Positions 27,909 through 36,511 of a DNA stretch of 64,000 nucleotides are shown piece after piece. A program made the position numbers and the translations under genes. The stretch comes from Flavobacterium cupriresistens (GTDB lineage Bacteria; Bacteroidota; Bacteroidia; Flavobacteriales; Flavobacteriaceae), in contig NZ_CP087134.1 of assembly GCF_020911925.1 (NCBI RefSeq), positions 2,914,001 to 2,978,000 on the forward strand. Reading direction: 5' to 3'. Below the pieces are notes generated by a model. The model did no database searches, had not been told where the DNA came from, and saw nothing but the letters and a program-made list of their open reading frames with translations. The stretch's first letter is position 1; each line of letters starts with the position of its first letter.

Positions 27909-28541
27909 CTACAGATCAATCTTCTTCAACTCCTTATAGTTAGCGTATAATCTGCGTAAAAGTGTACCGTACAATAATCTGTAAAAGCACCAGAATATCC
28001 CTAAGAAAGCTAATGTAACCAAAAGTAAAATCCCACCCGTAACAAACATTGCTTTACCGTTTGTCGCTAATTTATCTCTTAAAAAGCTCATATCCGGATT
28101 GTATACAAAGGCGATAAAGAAACTTATTATCGAACTGATTACGGCCATTCCCAAATTATACCACACATAATATTGAACTGTTCTTCGGGTTTTCAAAATA
28201 CTGCTCATTAATAGTTTAGTAGACCCTGTAGTCGATATTGTTTTGTAATTTTTATAGAAAAAATAGACAAAAATAAGCACAACTACATAGTTGAAGTAGG
28301 TTAAAACAGCAAGATAAAAAATCATTTCAGGATGTTTTATCTTAATTAACATTTCATCAGTACTGAAAAATAAATTTGAAACGGTCCAGAATAAAATTTC
28401 CAAAATACTGATAATCAAAATCCACTTCACGATCGAAGAAGATTTTTTGTGTATCATTTTGTAGATTTCATTTTCTGAAATTTGCTCAAAAGAATCGGCA
28501 TTCTTTTTCCAGTCTTTTTTTAATAAATCCAGTTCTTTCAT
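27909..28541 (-). CDS. four-helix membrane protein next to ECF sigma factor
   Basis: This 210-residue protein has a charged, soluble N-terminus (LKKDWKKNADSFEQISENEI) followed by four transmembrane helices, near residues 40-58, 75-97, 125-148 and 168-188. I do not recognise a named domain. It starts 8 bp after the ECF sigma gene ends, the usual place for an anti-sigma factor, and the cytosolic N-terminus could bind sigma. It has no FecR or zinc-type anti-sigma motif, so this role is inference. An alternative is a stress-related membrane protein merely co-transcribed with the sigma factor. Confidence 0.75.
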   Translation of the reverse strand: MKELDLLKKDWKKNADSFEQISENEIYKMIHKKSSSIVKWILIISILEILFWTVSNLFFSTDEMLIKIKHPEMIFYLAVLTYFNYVVVLIFVYFFYKNYKTISTTGSTKLLMSSILKTRRTVQYYVWYNLGMAVISSIISFFIAFVYNPDMSFLRDKLATNGKAMFVTGGILLLVTLAFLGIFWCFYRLLYGTLLRRLYANYKELKKIDL

Positions 28542-28549
28542 AATAATTT

Positions 28550-29044
28550 TTAAGGATTTAATATTTTTTTAAGTTTCCCTTTTATTCTGTTCATTTTCAC
28601 ACGTGCATTCACTTCGCTGATTCCTAAGGTCTCTGCTATTTCTTGATAATCTTTGTCTTCTAAATACATAAAAACTAATGCTTTTTCGATGTCATTAAGC
28701 TGATAAACGGCTTTGTACATCAGTTTAATTTGTTCCTCCTCTTCATAGTTGTAATCAACGTCTTTTACAAAATGCTGATGACTTTCATAATCTACAGTAG
28801 ATATGGTTCTTTTGGTTTTTCGATATAAGGTAATGGCGGTATTTAAAGCAACGCGATACGTCCAGGTCGAAAATTTACTGTCGCCTCTAAATTTAGGATA
28901 AGCTTTCCATAATTGAATAGTAATTTCCTGAAACAAGTCTTTATGAGCGTCTTCGCCAGCAGTATATAATCTACAAATCTTGTGGATTATATTCTGATTT
29001 GCCTGCAATTGCACAACAAATGACTGTTCTAGATTTTCGCTCAT
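28550..29044 (-). CDS. ECF-type RNA polymerase sigma factor
   Basis: This 164-residue protein has region 2 (HKDLFQEITIQLWKAYPKF, then STWTYRVALNTAI) and region 4 (LEDKDYQEIAETLGISEVNA, then KMNRIKGKL with a helix-turn-helix). Both are typical of extracytoplasmic function sigma factors. It should direct RNA polymerase to a small regulon in response to an envelope signal. A four-helix membrane protein follows and may be its anti-sigma factor. It is divergent from the barrel/macroglobulin operon, which could be a target. A palindromic site lies just before its start. Confidence 0.93.
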   Translation of the reverse strand: MSENLEQSFVVQLQANQNIIHKICRLYTAGEDAHKDLFQEITIQLWKAYPKFRGDSKFSTWTYRVALNTAITLYRKTKRTISTVDYESHQHFVKDVDYNYEEEEQIKLMYKAVYQLNDIEKALVFMYLEDKDYQEIAETLGISEVNARVKMNRIKGKLKKILNP

Positions 29045-29192: not shown

Positions 29193-31964
29193 ATGAATAT
29201 GAAAGAACTATTACTTTTGCTTTTTGTCTCAACAGTTGGATTTTCACAATCAGTTTATAAGGGAAATGTAAGTGAGGGAGGTCTTGCATTACCGGGAGCC
29301 AGTATATGCATTCGAAATACAAAAACCTGTACTACCAGTGATTTTGATGGGAATTACCAAATTGAGGCTAAGGTTGGGGATATTTTGCAGATCTCTTATA
29401 TTGGAATGAAAACAAAGTCTTTTAAAATTACGCATGCAAGTTTTAAAAAAAAGAGCAATTCAGGTGATCAGATTCTAAGTAGTGATTATATAGAAAAAGT
29501 AAGAAAAACGACAGATACAGTTAAAATTGCGCAGTCATCCGGAAGCCATGAGCTTAATCTTAGTGAAGTTTTCGAAGATCAAAATATACTCAAAATTGAT
29601 CGAAATAAGTATGGTATCTATAGCGTTAAAAAAAGAAACCAATATCATAAAATATCTTTTGAATTAAATCAGGAATATATTTCTTCGACACCAATCCGAC
29701 TCTCAAAATATCAAAATACATATGCACAAGGAAGGAGCTTAAACGGAGAAGCAGTGTATCAATCTCCTGCGACTAAGGAAATTTTTAGCTGGGGACCAAA
29801 TGTCAATTCTTTAGCATATTCGACAACCCCTTCAGAGTATTATCCGCAAGGGGATATTGTAAACAAGTCTTCAGGGAATAGTAATACATTACAATTGCAC
29901 AATGCGAATGATTTTTTCCAAAACGGGGTGGATAATAAATTTTCGTTGGCCACTCAAATTGAAAGCCCCAAAGGAAATTTTCTTAAAATAAATTTTTTCT
30001 ATAAAACAGGTACCATCTCGATTCCAACAAGTAGAAATAATGAAAGTACAACAACGTTAAAGTATTTTAGAAGAGTGTCGAATTTCAGCACAATTGAAAC
30101 ACTTCTGTCATACAATGATTTTGAAAACAATCTTTCCAATTCCAATTTTGGAGTAAATAAAATCATTTTTGGTAACGCTGTTACACCAATTCATTTTGAT
30201 AATAAAACAGCTTCAACACTGTCAAGCGGTTTACAACGAAGTTATTCTGCTTTTGAAAATAACCCCTATTATTTGATTCAGAATAATTTAGATAAAAACA
30301 AAAGTAAAACAGTTTCTTTTGTTTTTAATCATAAATACAGTAAGGGGGCTTATGAAAATACTTTAAATGCCAATTTTCAATCTTCTGAAATTACAAACAG
30401 TAGCGGTCAGAATTTTAATTTTGCGAGGATTACGGCTCCAAATGTCAATAAAAGATTCGAAAAATTCAAGAATTTTTCTGTTTCGGATTTTCTCAGACGT
30501 GATTTTAATAGTGATGCATTTGTCGAATCAAAAATGGAGTTCAGATTTCTGGAGCGGGGTCTGGAAAGAAATTATTTTAGCGGATTTGTGACTCCAATTG
30601 ATGCTCCTGCCAATAATTTGCCTCAGAATAAACTTGATAGTAGACAGAAGAGAGTTGAAGTTTTTTACAATCTAAATGGTTCCTATTCTTTTAAAGATAT
30701 TTTAGGCAACTATGAAGAACTTGTCTTAAAAGCAAGTTCGAACTTAAATTATTCTTCAACAGTCAAGAATAGATTAATGTTAAATTCACTTGTTTCTGCA
30801 GAAATAAAAAACCTGTTTAATAAAAAAATGGCATTTAGTATCAGCTACACCTCAAATGAGACGGAACCTTCTCTGCAGAATAATAATTTGAGTTTTAATT
30901 CTTTGCGATACCAGGTCGCCCAGTTTAAGCAGCTTCAGAATAACTTAGAGCTGATGACTCCAAAAAATGCCATTGCTACAGAAGAAACAACTGCCAGTTT
31001 TGGGTTGCTTTATAACATAAACTACCGCTGGAGTTTTAAGGTGAATTATTACAACAAAAATGTGCATAATTTATATGTTCCGGTTTTTAATTCGAATACG
31101 GTCAATTGGTCACCTGAGGTCAATTATAAACAAAAGGGGATTGAAGCGGAATTAGATAAGATAATTTATTTTTCACGTCAATTGAGTTATGGTTTTAACT
31201 TGAATTTTACACATTTCAGAAATGAAGTAACAAGCTTTAACAGCAATCAAACCCGTCTTCCTTTTGCCGGTTTTGCCGATGTAAACAAAAATTATATAGT
31301 AGGGCAACCACTTGGTGTTATTGTTGGTAATGGTTATTTAAGAGACGCAAATCATACTGTTATTGTCGATGAAAATGGTTTTCCTATTGAAGACGCACAA
31401 CCAAAAGTTTTAGGGAATGCGAATCCGGATTTTGTTGTTGGTTTGTCTAATACAATCCGTTACAAAGATTTAACGCTCAATTTTTCCTTTGATTGGAGTC
31501 AGGGAGGTAAAATATGGAACGGTACACAGCAAACTTTAAATTATTACGGAAAATCGGAATGGACCGGAAACCAAAGAAATGTTACCAATTATGTTTTTGA
31601 CGGTGTCACACAATCCGGTTTAAAAAACACTCAGCCAGTTTCGTTTTATGATGTCAATCTTCCGGTAGAACAAAATCGCTGGTCAAGATATGGTGTAGAA
31701 GGAGTCGCAGAAGAGGCGATAGAAGACGCTACGTACGTAAGATTGAGTTCGGTTAATCTGTCTTACACAAAAGGTTTCGATTATTTTGATAATAAATTCA
31801 GTTTTTCTATTTCCTTTTTTATGAATAATGTTTTCATTATCTCCAAAAGCAAGTCTGCTTTTAGTAACAATGCCATGTTTAATTCTATAGAAACCGGTGG
31901 ATTAGATTATTTCAATGCCCCAATGATGAGAAGCTTTGGATCTTCCTTAACAATCAAATTTTAA
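29193..31964 (+). CDS. SusC/RagA-like outer-membrane barrel lacking a plug domain
   Basis: A signal peptide ends near VGFSQ. Residues about 20-75 are a CarboxypepD_reg-like domain (GGLALPGASICIRN, TTSDFDGNYQIEAKVGD, SYIGMKTKSF). In a normal SusC protein a plug follows, with a VVVxGYG motif and a DGxP motif. Here it is missing and the chain passes through about 45 unmatched residues straight into the barrel (FELNQEYISSTPIRLSKYQN, FSWGPNVN). The barrel runs to the C-terminal strand FGSSLTIKF. With 923 residues it is a full-sized barrel. The next gene, 5 bp downstream, encodes a protein containing the absent plug. The pair probably forms one transport or sensing complex; that is inference. Confidence 0.88.
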   Translation: MNMKELLLLLFVSTVGFSQSVYKGNVSEGGLALPGASICIRNTKTCTTSDFDGNYQIEAKVGDILQISYIGMKTKSFKITHASFKKKSNSGDQILSSDYIEKVRKTTDTVKIAQSSGSHELNLSEVFEDQNILKIDRNKYGIYSVKKRNQYHKISFELNQEYISSTPIRLSKYQNTYAQGRSLNGEAVYQSPATKEIFSWGPNVNSLAYSTTPSEYYPQGDIVNKSSGNSNTLQLHNANDFFQNGVDNKFSLATQIESPKGNFLKINFFYKTGTISIPTSRNNESTTTLKYFRRVSNFSTIETLLSYNDFENNLSNSNFGVNKIIFGNAVTPIHFDNKTASTLSSGLQRSYSAFENNPYYLIQNNLDKNKSKTVSFVFNHKYSKGAYENTLNANFQSSEITNSSGQNFNFARITAPNVNKRFEKFKNFSVSDFLRRDFNSDAFVESKMEFRFLERGLERNYFSGFVTPIDAPANNLPQNKLDSRQKRVEVFYNLNGSYSFKDILGNYEELVLKASSNLNYSSTVKNRLMLNSLVSAEIKNLFNKKMAFSISYTSNETEPSLQNNNLSFNSLRYQVAQFKQLQNNLELMTPKNAIATEETTASFGLLYNINYRWSFKVNYYNKNVHNLYVPVFNSNTVNWSPEVNYKQKGIEAELDKIIYFSRQLSYGFNLNFTHFRNEVTSFNSNQTRLPFAGFADVNKNYIVGQPLGVIVGNGYLRDANHTVIVDENGFPIEDAQPKVLGNANPDFVVGLSNTIRYKDLTLNFSFDWSQGGKIWNGTQQTLNYYGKSEWTGNQRNVTNYVFDGVTQSGLKNTQPVSFYDVNLPVEQNRWSRYGVEGVAEEAIEDATYVRLSSVNLSYTKGFDYFDNKFSFSISFFMNNVFIISKSKSAFSNNAMFNSIETGGLDYFNAPMMRSFGSSLTIKF

Positions 31965-31969
31965 TTAAA

Positions 31970-34900
31970 ATGAAAAATATATTATACGCAATGTTTCTGT
32001 TGGTATTTCAAACCGTGCTAGCCCAAGATATTGAAAAAGATTGGGATAAAATTTATAGAAAACCGATCACAGAAAAAGTATATCTGCAACTAAATAATGT
32101 GCTGTATGCGCCTGGTGAAACGATTTATTTTAAAGGATTTGTTACAGAAAGTGACAACAGTCCATCAACTTTAAGTGACTTTGTTTATGTAGATCTGTTT
32201 GATAGTGGTAACAAAAAAGTAGCCAGCCAGATTTATGTTGTCGAAAACGGCAGTGTAGCCTGTTCTTATAGAATTTCTGAAAATGCAGCTGCCGGGATGT
32301 ATAAAATAAAAGCATATACCCGAATTCAAAAACAGACTTCCGAGAATATTTTTGAGAGAACAGTTTTTGTACAAAAAGTAGTAACACCAAGAATTCTAAT
32401 GACGTTAGATTTTAAGAAAAAATCATACGGAAAAGGTGAAACTTGTGAAGCCGATTTTGAATTAAAAAATCTAGAAAACCAGGCCATTAAGTATCAGGTG
32501 TTTAAATATGATGTTTTTATTGCAGGAAGAAAGATAGATTCATTAGAAGGAAAAACCGACGAATTAGGAAAAGCGATTATTCATTTTAAATTGCCAAATG
32601 ATTTAAAGTCAAACGATGGAATCGTAAACGTTATGCTTGATTACGATAATTTTAAAGAATCGGTAACACGTGCCATTCCCATTGATTTAAATTTTGTTGA
32701 CTTACAATTTTTGCCGGAAAGCGGTAATTTTATTCTGAATGAAATTTCTTCTTTGTTTTTTATTGCAAAAAATGAGTTCGGATTACCAATGGATGTTGGA
32801 GGTTATATTGAAGATGAAAATGGAACTAAAGTGACTGATTTTACAACCACTCATGATGGAATGGGAAAGGTATTTTTAAAGACAGAAAAAAACAAAAAAT
32901 ACGTTGCAGTAGTAACTTCTCCATTTAAATCGCAAAAAAAAATAACATTACCTGAAGCCGGAAAAAATGTTTTTACAATAAACGCTCAAAAGACCGGAGA
33001 AAGTGTCGCGTTAAATATTTATGCACCATTAGCAATTGATGGCAATGTTTTGGTACGCAATACATCAAAGATTCATAAATCGGTAAAGGTGAATTTAGAG
33101 CAGGGCTGGAATACCGTTACTATAAAAACAGAGAATTTTCCGGTTGGTATACAGTCCTTTTCTTTAGTTATTGAAAAAAGAGTAGTAGCTGAGAGACTTG
33201 TTTTTCTGAATTATCAGGAGGGATTAAAAATAGAAATTAAAACAGACAAAAGCAGTTATTTACCAAGAGAAAAAGTTGAGGTCTCCGTTCTCACAAAGGA
33301 TAAAAATAATGATCCGATTTCTTCTAGTTTGTCTGTTTCAGTAGTCGACTCCAAGTTGTTGACTTATATAGATGACAAACAAGATACTATTTTATCGTGG
33401 CTGCTTCTCGGATCAGAGCTGAAAGGCAAAATTCATGAGCCAAGATTTTATTTTGATGACACTAAAAAAACAGAATTAAAAGAAGAAGCCATCGATTTAC
33501 TTTTAAATACGCATGGTTGGAGAAAGTACAGTCAAAAAGAGATTCAGAAGTTAATGTCAGAAAGGGAACATTTTGAGCCTGAAAAAAGTGATATACTCGA
33601 AGGTTTTGTTTTAAATAATAAAGAAAAACCGGTTGCGGTAAAAGTGATGTTTTTTACAGATCAGGGAAAAGTTTTTGAAACAAAAAGTAATTCAAGTGGT
33701 TATTTTAATTTTAACAGAGTTGTTTTTTCTGATTTTGGATGTTTGATTACGGAAAGCAGAAAATTAAACGAATACACGATTAAAAGCTCAATTTCAAATC
33801 AAGCTGATTTTTTGAGAATGAAAGACACGCTTTCCAATACGAGTTCAGTGGAAATAAATTATAAGGTTGTGAATAAAGAGAATACAGTTGAAAAAACAAC
33901 CGCACATGTAACATCAGGATCTAATTCCGTTTCTTTAAATTCTGATCAGGCTTTGTTGGAGTCTGTTGTAGTAACAGCATATGGTTATAGTTTTAAAAAA
34001 CAGCTTTCAAGCTCAGTTACTGTTATTAGTGCCCAGGAAATTGCACGTTCGTTAAGTGGGAGAGCAGCCGGAATTCAAATTACTTCAGGATCAGGTCAGC
34101 CGGGTGCTTCCGACAAAGTGGTAATCCGTGGGTACTCTTCACTTTATGGAAACAGGGCAGGGGGACAGCCATTGATTATTGTTGACGGAATTCCGTACCC
34201 GAATAATGAGAATTCTTCTGTGCTGGGAAATCTGCCTCCAGATTCAATAAACTCAATTGCTATTCTGAAAGATGCGTCCGCAACCACTCTTTATGGTTCA
34301 GGTGGGGCTAATGGAGTAATCTTGATAACGACAAAAAAGAAATTGCAACAGGGAAATATTCTTCTGGGAGGAAATTACAATTACAGTTTTCAAAATATTT
34401 CCAAGTCAGGTACAAGAGAACTAAACGAAGCAGAGTCTTTTTATAAGCCGATTTATAGCGCAACAACAACAGAAGAAAAATCGGATTTTAGAAGCTGTAT
34501 TTACTGGAACTCAATTATTCAAACCAATAATAAAGGAGTAGCCTATTTTGGGTTTTATAATTCTGATGATAATACGTCTTTTAAAATTATAGCAGAAGGG
34601 ACTTCTTATAAGGGAGATATTGGAAAATCGGAAGCTGTTTTTTCGGTAAGGGAATTAATTCAGTGCGATTTAAAAATTCCGGTTTATACTTCACAAGAAG
34701 ATGTTATTTTGATGCCACTGTGGTTAAAAAATAATTCTGAAAATAGTTTGAAATTAAACTATAAAATGATTTTTGATGGGAAAGAAAACGACAATTTTAA
34801 AAATTCTTTCGTAGTGCTAAATCCAAATGAATCTAAAACAGTTTATATCACATTGATTCCGAACAAAATGGGGGAAAATATTTCATTGGAAATTGTATTG

Positions 34901-36511
34901 GAAGGTGAAAACTTTAAAACTAAAATTAAGAAAACGATCAGTGTTTACGCTAAAGGTTTTCCGATGAATATTGATATTGCCGGAACTAAATCTCAGGATA
35001 CAGATTTTTCTATTTTTGAACCAATGCCCAGTTCTATTGACTCGGGAGTTAAGTTTTTCTTCAATCCATTCTCTGCTATTTTTGATGGTTTAGAAGGTAT
35101 GATGCGTGAACCTTCCGGGTGTTTTGAGCAGGTTTCTTCTTCCAATTACCCCAATATTATGGCAATGCAGTTGTTAAAATATAAAAATACGGCACCGGAA
35201 TTTAAAAATAAAGCTTTAAAATTTTTAGAATCAGGTTATAAAAAGCTAAAAAACTATGAATCAAAAGGCGGTGGTTTTGAATGGTACGGTGGAGACCCCG
35301 GTAATGAAGCTTTAACTGCTTATGGTTTATTGCAATTTAATGAAATGAAGGAATTTATAAACGTCGATGAAAAGATGATTGAAAGAACGACGAATTGGTT
35401 ATACTCAAGGAAAGATGGCCTGGGCGGATTCAAACAAAATTCAGGAAGATATGGTTTTTCAGGAATAAAATACGAGGTTAACAATGCTTATATTGTCTAT
35501 GTTTTGTCTGAAATTGGAGAAGATAATATCAAAAAAGAATATGAAAAAGGGTTAGAAGAAGCTTTAAAGAGCAATGATTTGTACCGAATGGAATTAATGG
35601 CTTTAGCTTCTTTTAATCTGAAAAAAGTGCATGAGTACAAGCAGTTGATGTCACTAATAAAAACTAAAATTGATAAGCTGGGATTAAAAGATTTGAAAGC
35701 AGAACAAACTGTTATTTCTAGTAACGGGAAATCTAAAACTATAGAAATTTCATCTCTTTACGCTCTTGCTTTGTTAAAAGAAAAACAAGTTACAAAAGAA
35801 GTGACAGACGTTTTAGACTATATTCAGTCGTCAAATTCAATTTATGGATTTGGTTCTACACAAGCTACTGCTCTGGCTTTGAAAGCAATTACCGAGTTTA
35901 CCAAAATTTATAGCAACTCAGTAACGGTAGCAGTTCCCAAAATGAATTTAAATAGGGAGTCGATAGATTTAAGAACGAAAGACAATAGCGGCAATGTAAT
36001 AGTAGGAAATTTAAAAATCAATGCAGGAACAAACAATTTTTCGGTTCAAATTCCGGAGAATAATACAATTCCCTATTTGTTTTATGTGAAATACAATACG
36101 TACACACCAAACAATTCTAAAAAATGTAAGCTGCTTTTAAAAACAAACACATTGACTAATAAATTGAAGATTAGTGAGACAGCAAGACTCGAAATTGAAA
36201 TTCAAAACAAGAGCGCAGAACAGGTTTCAAACCCTATTGCCCGAATTGGAATTCCAGGCGGATTAACTCCTGAGCCTTGGCAATTGAAATTGCTTGTGGA
36301 AAAAAACAATATAGATTATTATGAAATTTTTGGAAGTGAACTGGTTTTGTATTTTAGAAAGTTGGAAGCCAATGAAATCAGGAAAATTAACATTGATCTG
36401 AAAGCGATTGTTCCCGGGAAGTATAAAGGCGTAGCTTCATCCGCCTATCTGTATTATGAAAATGAACATAAGAACTGGAATCAGGGAGTCGAAATAGAAG
36501 TTATTCCCTAA
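31970..36511 (+). CDS. alpha-2-macroglobulin-like protein with embedded TonB plug domain
   Basis: This 1513-residue protein has a Sec signal peptide (ends TVLAQ). Its N-terminus is an MG2-type domain (TEKVYLQLNNVLYAPGETIY), followed by further macroglobulin domains to about 560 and a carboxypeptidase-regulatory-like domain (about 575-620). Residues about 664-787 are a TonB-receptor plug: SVVVTAYGY, GRAAGIQITSGSGQPGA, VVIRGYSS, IIVDGIPYP, AILKDASATTLYGS, GVILITT. Macroglobulin order then resumes with the A2M motif YWNSIIQTNNKGVAYFGFYN. The thioester-region motif GCFEQ has Cys1051 and Gln1054 retained. A helical TED domain (EWYGGDPGNEALTAYGLLQF) and a C-terminal receptor-like domain complete it. 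It lacks a lipobox. It is co-transcribed with the plugless barrel. Confidence 0.88.
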   Translation: MKNILYAMFLLVFQTVLAQDIEKDWDKIYRKPITEKVYLQLNNVLYAPGETIYFKGFVTESDNSPSTLSDFVYVDLFDSGNKKVASQIYVVENGSVACSYRISENAAAGMYKIKAYTRIQKQTSENIFERTVFVQKVVTPRILMTLDFKKKSYGKGETCEADFELKNLENQAIKYQVFKYDVFIAGRKIDSLEGKTDELGKAIIHFKLPNDLKSNDGIVNVMLDYDNFKESVTRAIPIDLNFVDLQFLPESGNFILNEISSLFFIAKNEFGLPMDVGGYIEDENGTKVTDFTTTHDGMGKVFLKTEKNKKYVAVVTSPFKSQKKITLPEAGKNVFTINAQKTGESVALNIYAPLAIDGNVLVRNTSKIHKSVKVNLEQGWNTVTIKTENFPVGIQSFSLVIEKRVVAERLVFLNYQEGLKIEIKTDKSSYLPREKVEVSVLTKDKNNDPISSSLSVSVVDSKLLTYIDDKQDTILSWLLLGSELKGKIHEPRFYFDDTKKTELKEEAIDLLLNTHGWRKYSQKEIQKLMSEREHFEPEKSDILEGFVLNNKEKPVAVKVMFFTDQGKVFETKSNSSGYFNFNRVVFSDFGCLITESRKLNEYTIKSSISNQADFLRMKDTLSNTSSVEINYKVVNKENTVEKTTAHVTSGSNSVSLNSDQALLESVVVTAYGYSFKKQLSSSVTVISAQEIARSLSGRAAGIQITSGSGQPGASDKVVIRGYSSLYGNRAGGQPLIIVDGIPYPNNENSSVLGNLPPDSINSIAILKDASATTLYGSGGANGVILITTKKKLQQGNILLGGNYNYSFQNISKSGTRELNEAESFYKPIYSATTTEEKSDFRSCIYWNSIIQTNNKGVAYFGFYNSDDNTSFKIIAEGTSYKGDIGKSEAVFSVRELIQCDLKIPVYTSQEDVILMPLWLKNNSENSLKLNYKMIFDGKENDNFKNSFVVLNPNESKTVYITLIPNKMGENISLEIVLEGENFKTKIKKTISVYAKGFPMNIDIAGTKSQDTDFSIFEPMPSSIDSGVKFFFNPFSAIFDGLEGMMREPSGCFEQVSSSNYPNIMAMQLLKYKNTAPEFKNKALKFLESGYKKLKNYESKGGGFEWYGGDPGNEALTAYGLLQFNEMKEFINVDEKMIERTTNWLYSRKDGLGGFKQNSGRYGFSGIKYEVNNAYIVYVLSEIGEDNIKKEYEKGLEEALKSNDLYRMELMALASFNLKKVHEYKQLMSLIKTKIDKLGLKDLKAEQTVISSNGKSKTIEISSLYALALLKEKQVTKEVTDVLDYIQSSNSIYGFGSTQATALALKAITEFTKIYSNSVTVAVPKMNLNRESIDLRTKDNSGNVIVGNLKINAGTNNFSVQIPENNTIPYLFYVKYNTYTPNNSKKCKLLLKTNTLTNKLKISETARLEIEIQNKSAEQVSNPIARIGIPGGLTPEPWQLKLLVEKNNIDYYEIFGSELVLYFRKLEANEIRKINIDLKAIVPGKYKGVASSAYLYYENEHKNWNQGVEIEVIP

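What the first reader, a model, noticed from the sequence alone, without database searches (positions are those of the whole stretch)
29193..36511. Split TonB-type receptor: barrel in one protein, plug inside a macroglobulin
The 923-residue SusC-like barrel keeps its CarboxypepD domain but has no plug. The next gene, 5 bp away, encodes an alpha-2-macroglobulin-like protein with a full plug signature (VVVTAYGY, VVIRGYSS, VDGIPYP, GVILITT) at residues about 664-787. Barrel without plug plus plug without barrel in one operon suggests the two proteins complete each other. The macroglobulin might sit in or below the barrel and respond to proteases, peptides or large cargo. I know of no experimentally described system of this kind.
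Basis: partly seen in the sequence, partly recalled or inferred. Interest (0 to 1): 0.87.

Follow-up and report, generated by a model that had tools for sequence, protein, structure and literature searches.

The report
Two-piece TonB receptor with macroglobulin plug
A bacterial outer-membrane channel that should carry its own stopper has lost it, and the stopper sits instead in the trigger position of the neighbouring complement-like trap protein, which suggests a gate and a covalent trap built as one machine.

Summary
The 923-residue protein is a SusC-type barrel (22 predicted strands) without a plug; the next gene encodes a 1513-residue thioester macroglobulin with a full TonB box and SusC plug. 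Of 58 barrel-anchored loci with a plugless barrel ORF over 700 aa, one stops at its contig end and the other 57 have this macroglobulin beside it. Of 72 macroglobulin-anchored loci, 69 carry a plug and have upstream sequence; all 69 have a plugless barrel there, while a plug-free relative has none in 13 kb. The plugless barrels form one clade. New here: the plug occupies the slot where animal macroglobulins have the protease bait and complement proteins the anaphylatoxin, just before the R-x-x-F trigger motif; in another genome the slot holds a TonB C-terminal domain. I propose that the plug closes the barrel from the periplasm and doubles as bait, so that TonB pulling or plug cleavage opens the pore and arms the thioester. 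Split receptor about 0.8; plug as trigger about 0.4. Docking is not shown: no complex could be predicted, and covariation had no power. The ten paper searches showed no such system.

The parts
29193..31964 (+). plugless SusC-type outer-membrane barrel protein, 923 aa
   Evidence: AF2 model pLDDT 88.5 with 22 strands by my count; best Foldseek match SusC 5fq6, E 1.3e-43
29259..29444 (+). CarboxypepD_reg-like N-terminal extension (residues 23-84), kept from SusC
   Evidence: Pfam PF13715 3.1e-10
29445..29642 (+). linker of about 66 residues where TonB box and plug of a normal SusC should be
   Evidence: no Plug hit; pLDDT under 50 at 84-94 and 101-114 of the model
29646..31961 (+). complete 22-strand barrel (residues 152-923)
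31970..36511 (+). thioester alpha-2-macroglobulin family protein with an inserted TonB box and plug, 1513 aa, signal peptide (by eye) without lipobox
32075..32332 (+). MG2 domain (residues 36-121)
   Evidence: Pfam PF01835 4.9e-13
32993..33361 (+). bait-region-domain-like MG domain (A2M_BRD, residues 342-464), weak here
   Evidence: PF07703 E 0.05 here, 0.0017 in L266 and L053, 0.0037 in L120
33956..33982 (+). TonB box LESVVVTAY (residues 663-671)
   Evidence: family consensus L-x-E-V-V-V, e.g. E/D at 665 in 139 of 144 pairs; same place before the plug as DEVVVTG of BT1763 (PMC7782687, passage)
33998..34318 (+). TonB-dependent receptor plug domain (residues 677-783) in the bait-region slot
   Evidence: PF07715 1.6e-14; TIGR04056 2.6e-44; slot
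34478..34489 (+). BR-C trigger motif K-S-D-F (residues 837-840), equivalent of R-K-Y-F in human A2M and Arg730/Phe733 of A2ML1
   Evidence: alignment; K/R in 141 of 144 and F/Y in 139 of 144 pairs; PMC9156758 passages
34502..34759 (+). A2M domain (PF00207, residues 845-930), below Pfam's cut-off here
   Evidence: E 0.0083, 16.4 bits against a cut-off of 21
35084..35899 (+). thioester domain TED (residues 1039-1310)
   Evidence: PF07678 1.9e-22
35117..35131 (+). thioester motif GCFEQ (residues 1050-1054)
   Evidence: 144 of 144 pairs; 120 of 120 listed homologues
28550..29044 (-). divergent ECF sigma factor (named by eye), associated but not part of the core
   Evidence: a same-cluster gene in 28 of 62 loci
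27909..28541 (-). membrane protein behind the sigma factor, possibly its anti-sigma factor (by eye)
   Evidence: a same-cluster gene in 8 of 62 loci

Best explanation
It is a TonB-dependent outer-membrane receptor split over two chains. The first gene makes the barrel; the second makes a soluble periplasmic macroglobulin whose bait-region slot holds the TonB box and plug. Step 1 (inferred): the plug docks into the barrel from the periplasm, so the macroglobulin hangs below the pore with its thioester domain. Step 2 (inferred): TonB binds the TonB box and pulls; because the plug is not covalently tied to the barrel it can leave completely and give a full-bore opening. Step 3 (inferred): pulling, ejecting or cleaving the plug disturbs the R-x-x-F strand next to it, as bait cleavage does in animal macroglobulins, and exposes the thioester. 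Step 4 (inferred): the thioester couples covalently to whatever comes through the open pore, a protease, another protein or a cargo. Shown: the anatomy, the slot from its C-terminal side, intact TonB box, trigger motif and thioester, pairing in every informative locus examined, and one clade of plugless barrels. My probabilities: split receptor with the plug in this barrel 0.8; plug acting as bait or trigger 0.4; substrate and purpose open.
For: Complementary loss and gain of the plug. Pairing: 57 of 57 informative barrel-anchored and 69 of 69 informative macroglobulin-anchored loci. Natural control: L120 belongs to the same macroglobulin subfamily, has no plug, and has no barrel in the 13 kb fetched. 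In a tree of 95 barrels the 61 plugless rows are one side of a branch (SH-aLRT 100, quick method), next to a single-chain plug-plus-barrel lineage. At 32 columns over 80% conserved in 36 canonical SusC plugs, 129 A2M plugs have the same commonest residue at 31, and over 80% of it at 22. TonB box, R/K-x-x-F/Y and CFEQ conserved in 144 pairs. Slot: the main sequence and fold alignments to human A2M, A2ML1, TEP1 and C3 begin behind the plug; bait region and, in complement, the anaphylatoxin domain sit in that insert in MG6 (PMC9156758, passages). The same slot carries a TonB C-terminal domain, 4.7e-20, in L266 and six listed relatives. SusC plugs were seen displaced from the barrel in vitro (PMC7782687, passages).
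Against: No complex structure was predicted. Covariation between plug and barrel was uninformative: the positive control failed. Partial distance correlation ranked the plug 64 of 89 windows overall (1 of 45, 4 of 45 and 35 of 45 in close, middle and far pairs, a split made afterwards). Free-standing plugs also occur without an adjacent barrel, e.g. on a vWA protein in the same genome (L233); 25 plugs of such non-A2M, non-barrel proteins keep the canonical columns about as well, so plug conservation alone does not prove docking in this barrel. The plug part of the model has only 34-73 pLDDT by block. The N-terminal border of the slot rests on a weak A2M_BRD match (0.05) and was not mapped by fold, as the model began at residue 541. 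L073 keeps the pair with only half a plug and L053 with a poor one (9.4e-7 and 5.7e-5). No experiment on any member was found.
Confidence: 0.55

Rival explanations
1. Burglar alarm without TonB: the plug docks in the barrel only to close and anchor; the macroglobulin is an ordinary protease trap that fires when a protease entering through the pore cuts the plug or its linkers.
For: Bait slot, R-x-x-F motif and thioester are those of protease-triggered macroglobulins (PMC9156758 passages). [quoted passage not shown]
Against: The TonB box is well conserved, and relatives carry a TonB C-terminal domain in the slot, which a pure protease bait would not need.
Confidence: 0.22
2. Import or export adaptor: the plug docks and TonB drives transport, but the macroglobulin handles peptides or proteins as a carrier or chaperone and the thioester is not the main output.
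For: The nearest barrel folds include the peptide importer RagA; pairing and conservation do not tell the cargo.
Against: CFEQ is invariant in 144 of 144 pairs, so the thioester is under strong constraint. No cluster that I recognised as SusD was among the 22 neighbour clusters printed (no SusD profile was run).
Confidence: 0.12
3. The free plug does not enter this barrel; it is a TonB-binding or signalling module, as in the vWA and anti-sigma-like plug proteins, and the barrel is closed by something else or is open.
For: A plug on a vWA protein exists with no barrel beside it; Chryseobacterium-type loci have both another plug protein and an A2M plug beside one barrel.
Against: Strict pairing of plugless barrels with plug-bearing A2Ms, one clade of such barrels, and no barrel beside the plug-free L120.
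Confidence: 0.1
4. Annotation or assembly artefact, or random domain shuffling without joint function.
For: CarboxypepD and plug domains occur on several unrelated proteins in these genomes.
Against: 116 non-redundant locus pairs in many genera with conserved motifs.
Confidence: 0.01

Closest known systems
SusC/RagA TonB-dependent receptors (BT2264, BT1763, RagA)
   Same: 22-strand barrel, CarboxypepD N-terminal extension, TonB box and plug of the same family
   Different: plug and TonB box are on another protein; no SusD-like neighbour was recognised (no profile run)
Animal alpha-2-macroglobulins, A2ML1, CD109, insect TEP1, complement C3/C4/C5
   Same: MG2, thioester domain, R-x-x-F trigger element, insert in the same slot before it
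   Different: the slot holds a TonB plug instead of a bait region or anaphylatoxin domain; bacterial and paired with a channel
Bacterial Type I A2Ms such as E. coli YfhM (ECAM) and Salmonella A2M
   Same: bacterial thioester macroglobulin, probably periplasmic
   Different: weaker match (8.1e-17 against 2.8e-50 for human A2M); these PDB entries are named lipoproteins, while the window protein has no lipobox; that they have no plug is recalled
vWA-YfbK proteins with a plug, and proteins with half plugs (L233, L041, L119)
   Same: a TonB plug placed on a non-barrel protein
   Different: no thioester domain found in L233 and L041; in L233 no barrel adjacent
Dysgonomonas single-chain VIT-vWA-plug-barrel protein (L035, L048)
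   Same: barrel of the neighbouring lineage with a large domain joined to the plug
   Different: all in one chain; VIT and vWA instead of macroglobulin

Membership tests
TonB-dependent receptor, SusC/RagA family | 22-strand barrel of the SusC fold | tested here: met
   (predicted model)
TonB-dependent receptor, SusC/RagA family | plug domain in the same chain as the barrel | tested here: not met
   the plug is in the next gene's product
TonB-dependent receptor, SusC/RagA family | TonB box directly before the plug | tested here: met
   met only across the two chains: residues 663-671 of the macroglobulin
TonB-dependent receptor, SusC/RagA family | plug seated in the barrel lumen | not testable with these tools
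   no complex prediction possible; covariation without power
TonB-dependent receptor, SusC/RagA family | partner SusD lipoprotein | tested here: inconclusive
   none recognised among the 22 neighbour clusters printed for 62 loci; no SusD profile was run
Alpha-2-macroglobulin (thioester protein) family | MG domains and TED with the CxEQ thioester | tested here: met
Alpha-2-macroglobulin (thioester protein) family | BR-C trigger motif R-x-x-F behind the slot | tested here: met
   K/R 141 and F/Y 139 of 144; alignment; the window itself has K-S-D-F
Alpha-2-macroglobulin (thioester protein) family | protease-cleavable bait region in the MG6 slot | tested here: inconclusive
   the slot holds a TonB plug with low-confidence linkers; cleavability not tested
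Alpha-2-macroglobulin (thioester protein) family | covalent trapping of proteases | not testable with these tools
   needs protein
Bacterial Type I A2M of the ECAM kind | lipoprotein anchor | tested here: not met
   no lipobox in the window protein; 2 of 116 homologues match a loose pattern

The most novel reading that the evidence does not exclude
A mechanically triggered macroglobulin: the plug of a TonB-dependent channel is the bait of a complement-like thioester protein, so that proton-motive force through TonB both unplugs a full-bore outer-membrane pore and arms a covalent trap beneath it. This would be an energy-gated, bacterial counterpart of complement activation in which a pull replaces the proteolytic cut.
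Probability: 0.38. Interest if true: 0.95.

Novelty: categorically new. Interest (0 to 1): 0.87.

Why it matters
In the TonB-dependent receptors that I recall, plug and barrel are one chain; how far the plug leaves the barrel during transport is debated (recalled), and a natural two-chain receptor makes the question directly testable. For thioester proteins it shows a third kind of insert (after bait region and anaphylatoxin) in the trigger slot, and suggests that a force instead of a cut could fire it. It also offers a function for a family of bacterial macroglobulins whose profile matches human A2M better than E. coli A2M.

Tried and rejected
Hidden plug in the barrel: searched by Pfam, NCBIfam, a profile of A2M plugs and the predicted fold; rejected. 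P0219 has a faint plug-like C-terminal piece in its linker (10.6 bits for that stretch), possibly a relic.

Covariation of plug and barrel columns (144 pairs, effective number about 104): the enrichment of plug columns among top couplings went from 0.05 to 1.75 times expectation depending on the ridge value, and the control, neighbouring barrel strands among the top 50 intra-barrel couplings, stayed at background (0 to 4% against 2.7%). No power; discarded in both directions. Partial distance correlation: plug 64 of 89 overall; not used as support.

Plug tree: 148 columns for 107 rows, 24 of 103 inner branches starred; it does not show where the A2M plugs came from.

Linking proteins by identical longest contig: 40 A2M-barrel pairs among the 120 listed of each search; adjacency of these was not read, and they serve as pair data only (28 of the 144 after thinning).

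Literature: of ten searches, 7, 9 and 108 gave no paper, 8 gave 13 off-topic listings, 20 gave 2 off-topic, 21 listed 20 of 113 (TonB transport papers), 109 gave one on ZnuD, and 99, 100 and 112 gave background. No title or abstract start on a plug-bearing macroglobulin or a two-chain TonB receptor was seen; most subscription papers are not held. In PMC9156758 and PMC7782687 I read passages found by term; in PMC11658791 one passage; of PMC4498604 only the start of the abstract in the listing. The residue range of the human bait region is recalled.

Rows dropped or doubtful: L051 (contig ends at the barrel), L081 and L091 (barrel cut at contig start, plug status unknown), L060 (barrel in three frames) and L075 (barrel fragment) are not among the 57; L270 and L266 (both begin at a contig start) and L120 are not among the 69. 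Among the 69, the barrel frame of L259 is cut at the contig end and that of L166 begins late, so their N-termini are not fully read; L257 and L269 have the A2M in two frames. L081 has about 5 kb downstream without an A2M and scores like a canonical SusC (223 bits).
Full report
WHAT IS THERE. The window lies in a one-contig genome of 5.74 Mb whose closest named relatives in the searches are Flavobacterium. Two same-strand genes 5 bp apart encode a 923-residue barrel protein and a 1513-residue macroglobulin. The barrel protein keeps the SusC N-terminal CarboxypepD domain (23-84) and then goes through a short, low-confidence linker into the barrel; no Plug match exists at E<=1. TIGR04056, the single-chain SusC model, is divided between the two proteins: its positions 671-981 match the barrel protein and its positions 67-238, TonB box and plug, match the macroglobulin (2.6e-44). 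The database search found 711 relatives of the macroglobulin's C-terminal half and 265 of the barrel; the best 120 of each were listed, and 119 of the 120 macroglobulins gave a plug hit.

THE SLOT. In animal macroglobulins LNK and bait region form one insert in MG6; [quoted passage not shown] at its C-terminal end the conserved Arg730-Pro734 of A2ML1 pass through a channel, and their retraction is proposed to start the conformational change (PMC9156758, passages read). In our family the profile alignment to human A2M puts its R-K-Y-F on R/K837-x-D839-F840. In 144 non-redundant pairs residue 837 is K or R in 141 (mean over columns 11%), residue 840 is F or Y in 139, and CFEQ is present in 144. 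So TonB box and plug sit directly before the trigger motif, and trigger motif and thioester are kept. The N-terminal border of the slot is less sure: Pfam's bait-region domain lies before it (342-464) with only E 0.05 in the window protein, 0.0017-0.0037 in L053, L266 and L120.

THE PAIR. Of the 80, 58 have a plugless barrel ORF over 700 aa; one ends at its contig end, and the other 57 all have the macroglobulin next to it, one (L045) in reversed order, one (L077) with a gap in the assembly, one (L073) with half a plug (9.4e-7). The 18 loci whose barrel ORF also holds a plug have no such macroglobulin. Macroglobulin-anchored: matches at E<=1e-40 occur in 5 of 392 genomes of a phylum sample (counted from its table), 15 of 397 of the family, 15 of 398 of the genus, 26 of 395 of the order, 10 of 195 and 14 of 196 in two other families (the centres of these two were chosen because they have the pair); the samples overlap. 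Of 72 macroglobulin loci fetched or read in the window, 69 carry a plug and have upstream sequence, and all 69 have a plugless barrel there (L257 and L269 with the macroglobulin in two frames, L166 and L259 with a barrel N-terminus not fully read). L120, same subfamily and no plug, has no barrel in the 13 kb fetched. The two anchored sets overlap and must not be added up. Neighbour clustering over 62 loci finds the barrel (62), the macroglobulin (61) and an ECF sigma factor (28) as the most frequent; the next cluster is in 15 loci.

HISTORY. In a tree of 95 barrels, 61 plugless ones form one side of a branch with SH-aLRT 100 (quick method, LG+G4, no bootstrap), and the Dysgonomonas single-chain VIT-vWA-plug-barrel proteins are next to them. 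These Dysgonomonas genomes also have the pair (L223, L224). One origin of the split followed by joint inheritance or joint transfer fits. The plug tree cannot tell the origin of the A2M plug.

VARIANTS. In G1678 a second macroglobulin (L266) has a TonB C-terminal domain in the same slot (PF03544 4.7e-20); six further proteins of 1590-1652 aa share it, while 14 others of that list (P0247-P0260) show neither insert in their precomputed Pfam domains. In Chryseobacterium-type loci a further gene upstream of the barrel carries a plug; the one scanned, L041, is a vWA-YfbK protein with one probable membrane segment by eye. The window's own genome has a sigma-factor-like gene, a half-plug protein and a vWA-plug protein together at 5.713-5.717 Mb without a barrel in the 7 kb fetched (L233). 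Slot and plug are thus repeatedly wired to the TonB system.

LOCATION. The macroglobulin has a plain signal peptide by eye, no lipobox and no C-terminal sorting domain in the Pfam table; a plug enters a barrel from the periplasm (established knowledge), so the body should be periplasmic. This is inference.

HOW IT PROBABLY WORKS. Shown: anatomy, slot from its C-terminal side, conservation, pairing, one clade. Inferred: docking of the plug in this barrel; TonB pulling on it; full withdrawal of a plug that is not tied to the barrel; coupling of that movement, or of plug cleavage, to thioester exposure. Gray et al. saw SusC plugs displaced from the barrel in closed states in vitro and found growth defects of TonB box mutants (PMC7782687, passages), which makes withdrawal plausible. 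Results against or neutral: covariation without power, plug not outstanding in partial distance correlation, free plugs without barrels elsewhere that keep the same residues, half plug in L073, no complex predicted.

COMPARISON. It works like a TonB-dependent receptor but fails the single-chain plug feature, so it is not filed as an ordinary member. The macroglobulin passes the tests made for the thioester-protein family; a bait region was not demonstrable. I rate the combined system as categorically new on the papers that could be searched, with the reservation that these are open-access papers only.

Noticed in passing
L266 (G1678:C300:1-6100), residues 732-809 of the first ORF: A macroglobulin of the same subfamily has a TonB C-terminal domain (4.7e-20) in the bait slot instead of a plug; six database relatives of 1590-1652 aa share it.
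   Followed up: partly
L233 (own genome, C1:5711500-5718500): A sigma-factor-like gene, a 332-aa protein with a half-plug-like C-terminus (58 bits with the A2M plug profile, no Pfam Plug hit), and a 728-aa CarboxypepD + plug + vWA-YfbK protein in a row, with no barrel in the 7 kb fetched.
   Followed up: partly
Chryseobacterium-type loci, e.g. L041:5350-7929, L039:5348-7927: A further plug protein is encoded upstream of the plugless barrel, so two plug-bearing proteins sit beside one barrel; 36 of 37 plug-only ORFs found in loci with a plugless barrel are on the same strand upstream of it, some genomes counted twice. Only L041 was scanned by Pfam: vWA-YfbK plus plug.
   Followed up: partly
L035:5307-10265 and L048:5346-10268 (Dysgonomonas): Single-chain receptors with VIT and vWA domains (inter-alpha-trypsin inhibitor type; Pfam run on L035) between CarboxypepD domain and plug; neighbouring lineage of the plugless barrels.
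   Followed up: partly
L119:3105-3590: A 162-aa ORF upstream of the barrel that looks like two tandem half plugs (VDG...GVVLITTK) behind a signal peptide, by eye.
   Followed up: no
L257:6340-11043: The macroglobulin is in two same-frame ORFs divided by one stop, MG part (654 aa) and plug-TED part (913 aa); not known whether real.
   Followed up: no
P0219, residues about 120-185: A faint plug-like C-terminal stretch remains in the linker of one distant plugless barrel, a possible relic of the lost plug.
   Followed up: no
window 31970-36511: The family profile matches human A2M (2.8e-50), CD109 and insect TEP1 far better than E. coli A2M (8.1e-17), so it may bear on the origin of animal thioester proteins.
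   Followed up: no
window 27909-29044: Divergent ECF-sigma-like gene with a membrane protein behind it; genes of the sigma cluster accompany 28 of 62 loci, suggesting regulated expression.
   Followed up: partly
L056: A pair in a bin labelled Limnohabitans (Pseudomonadota) groups with Flavobacterium barrels, probably a binning error.
   Followed up: no
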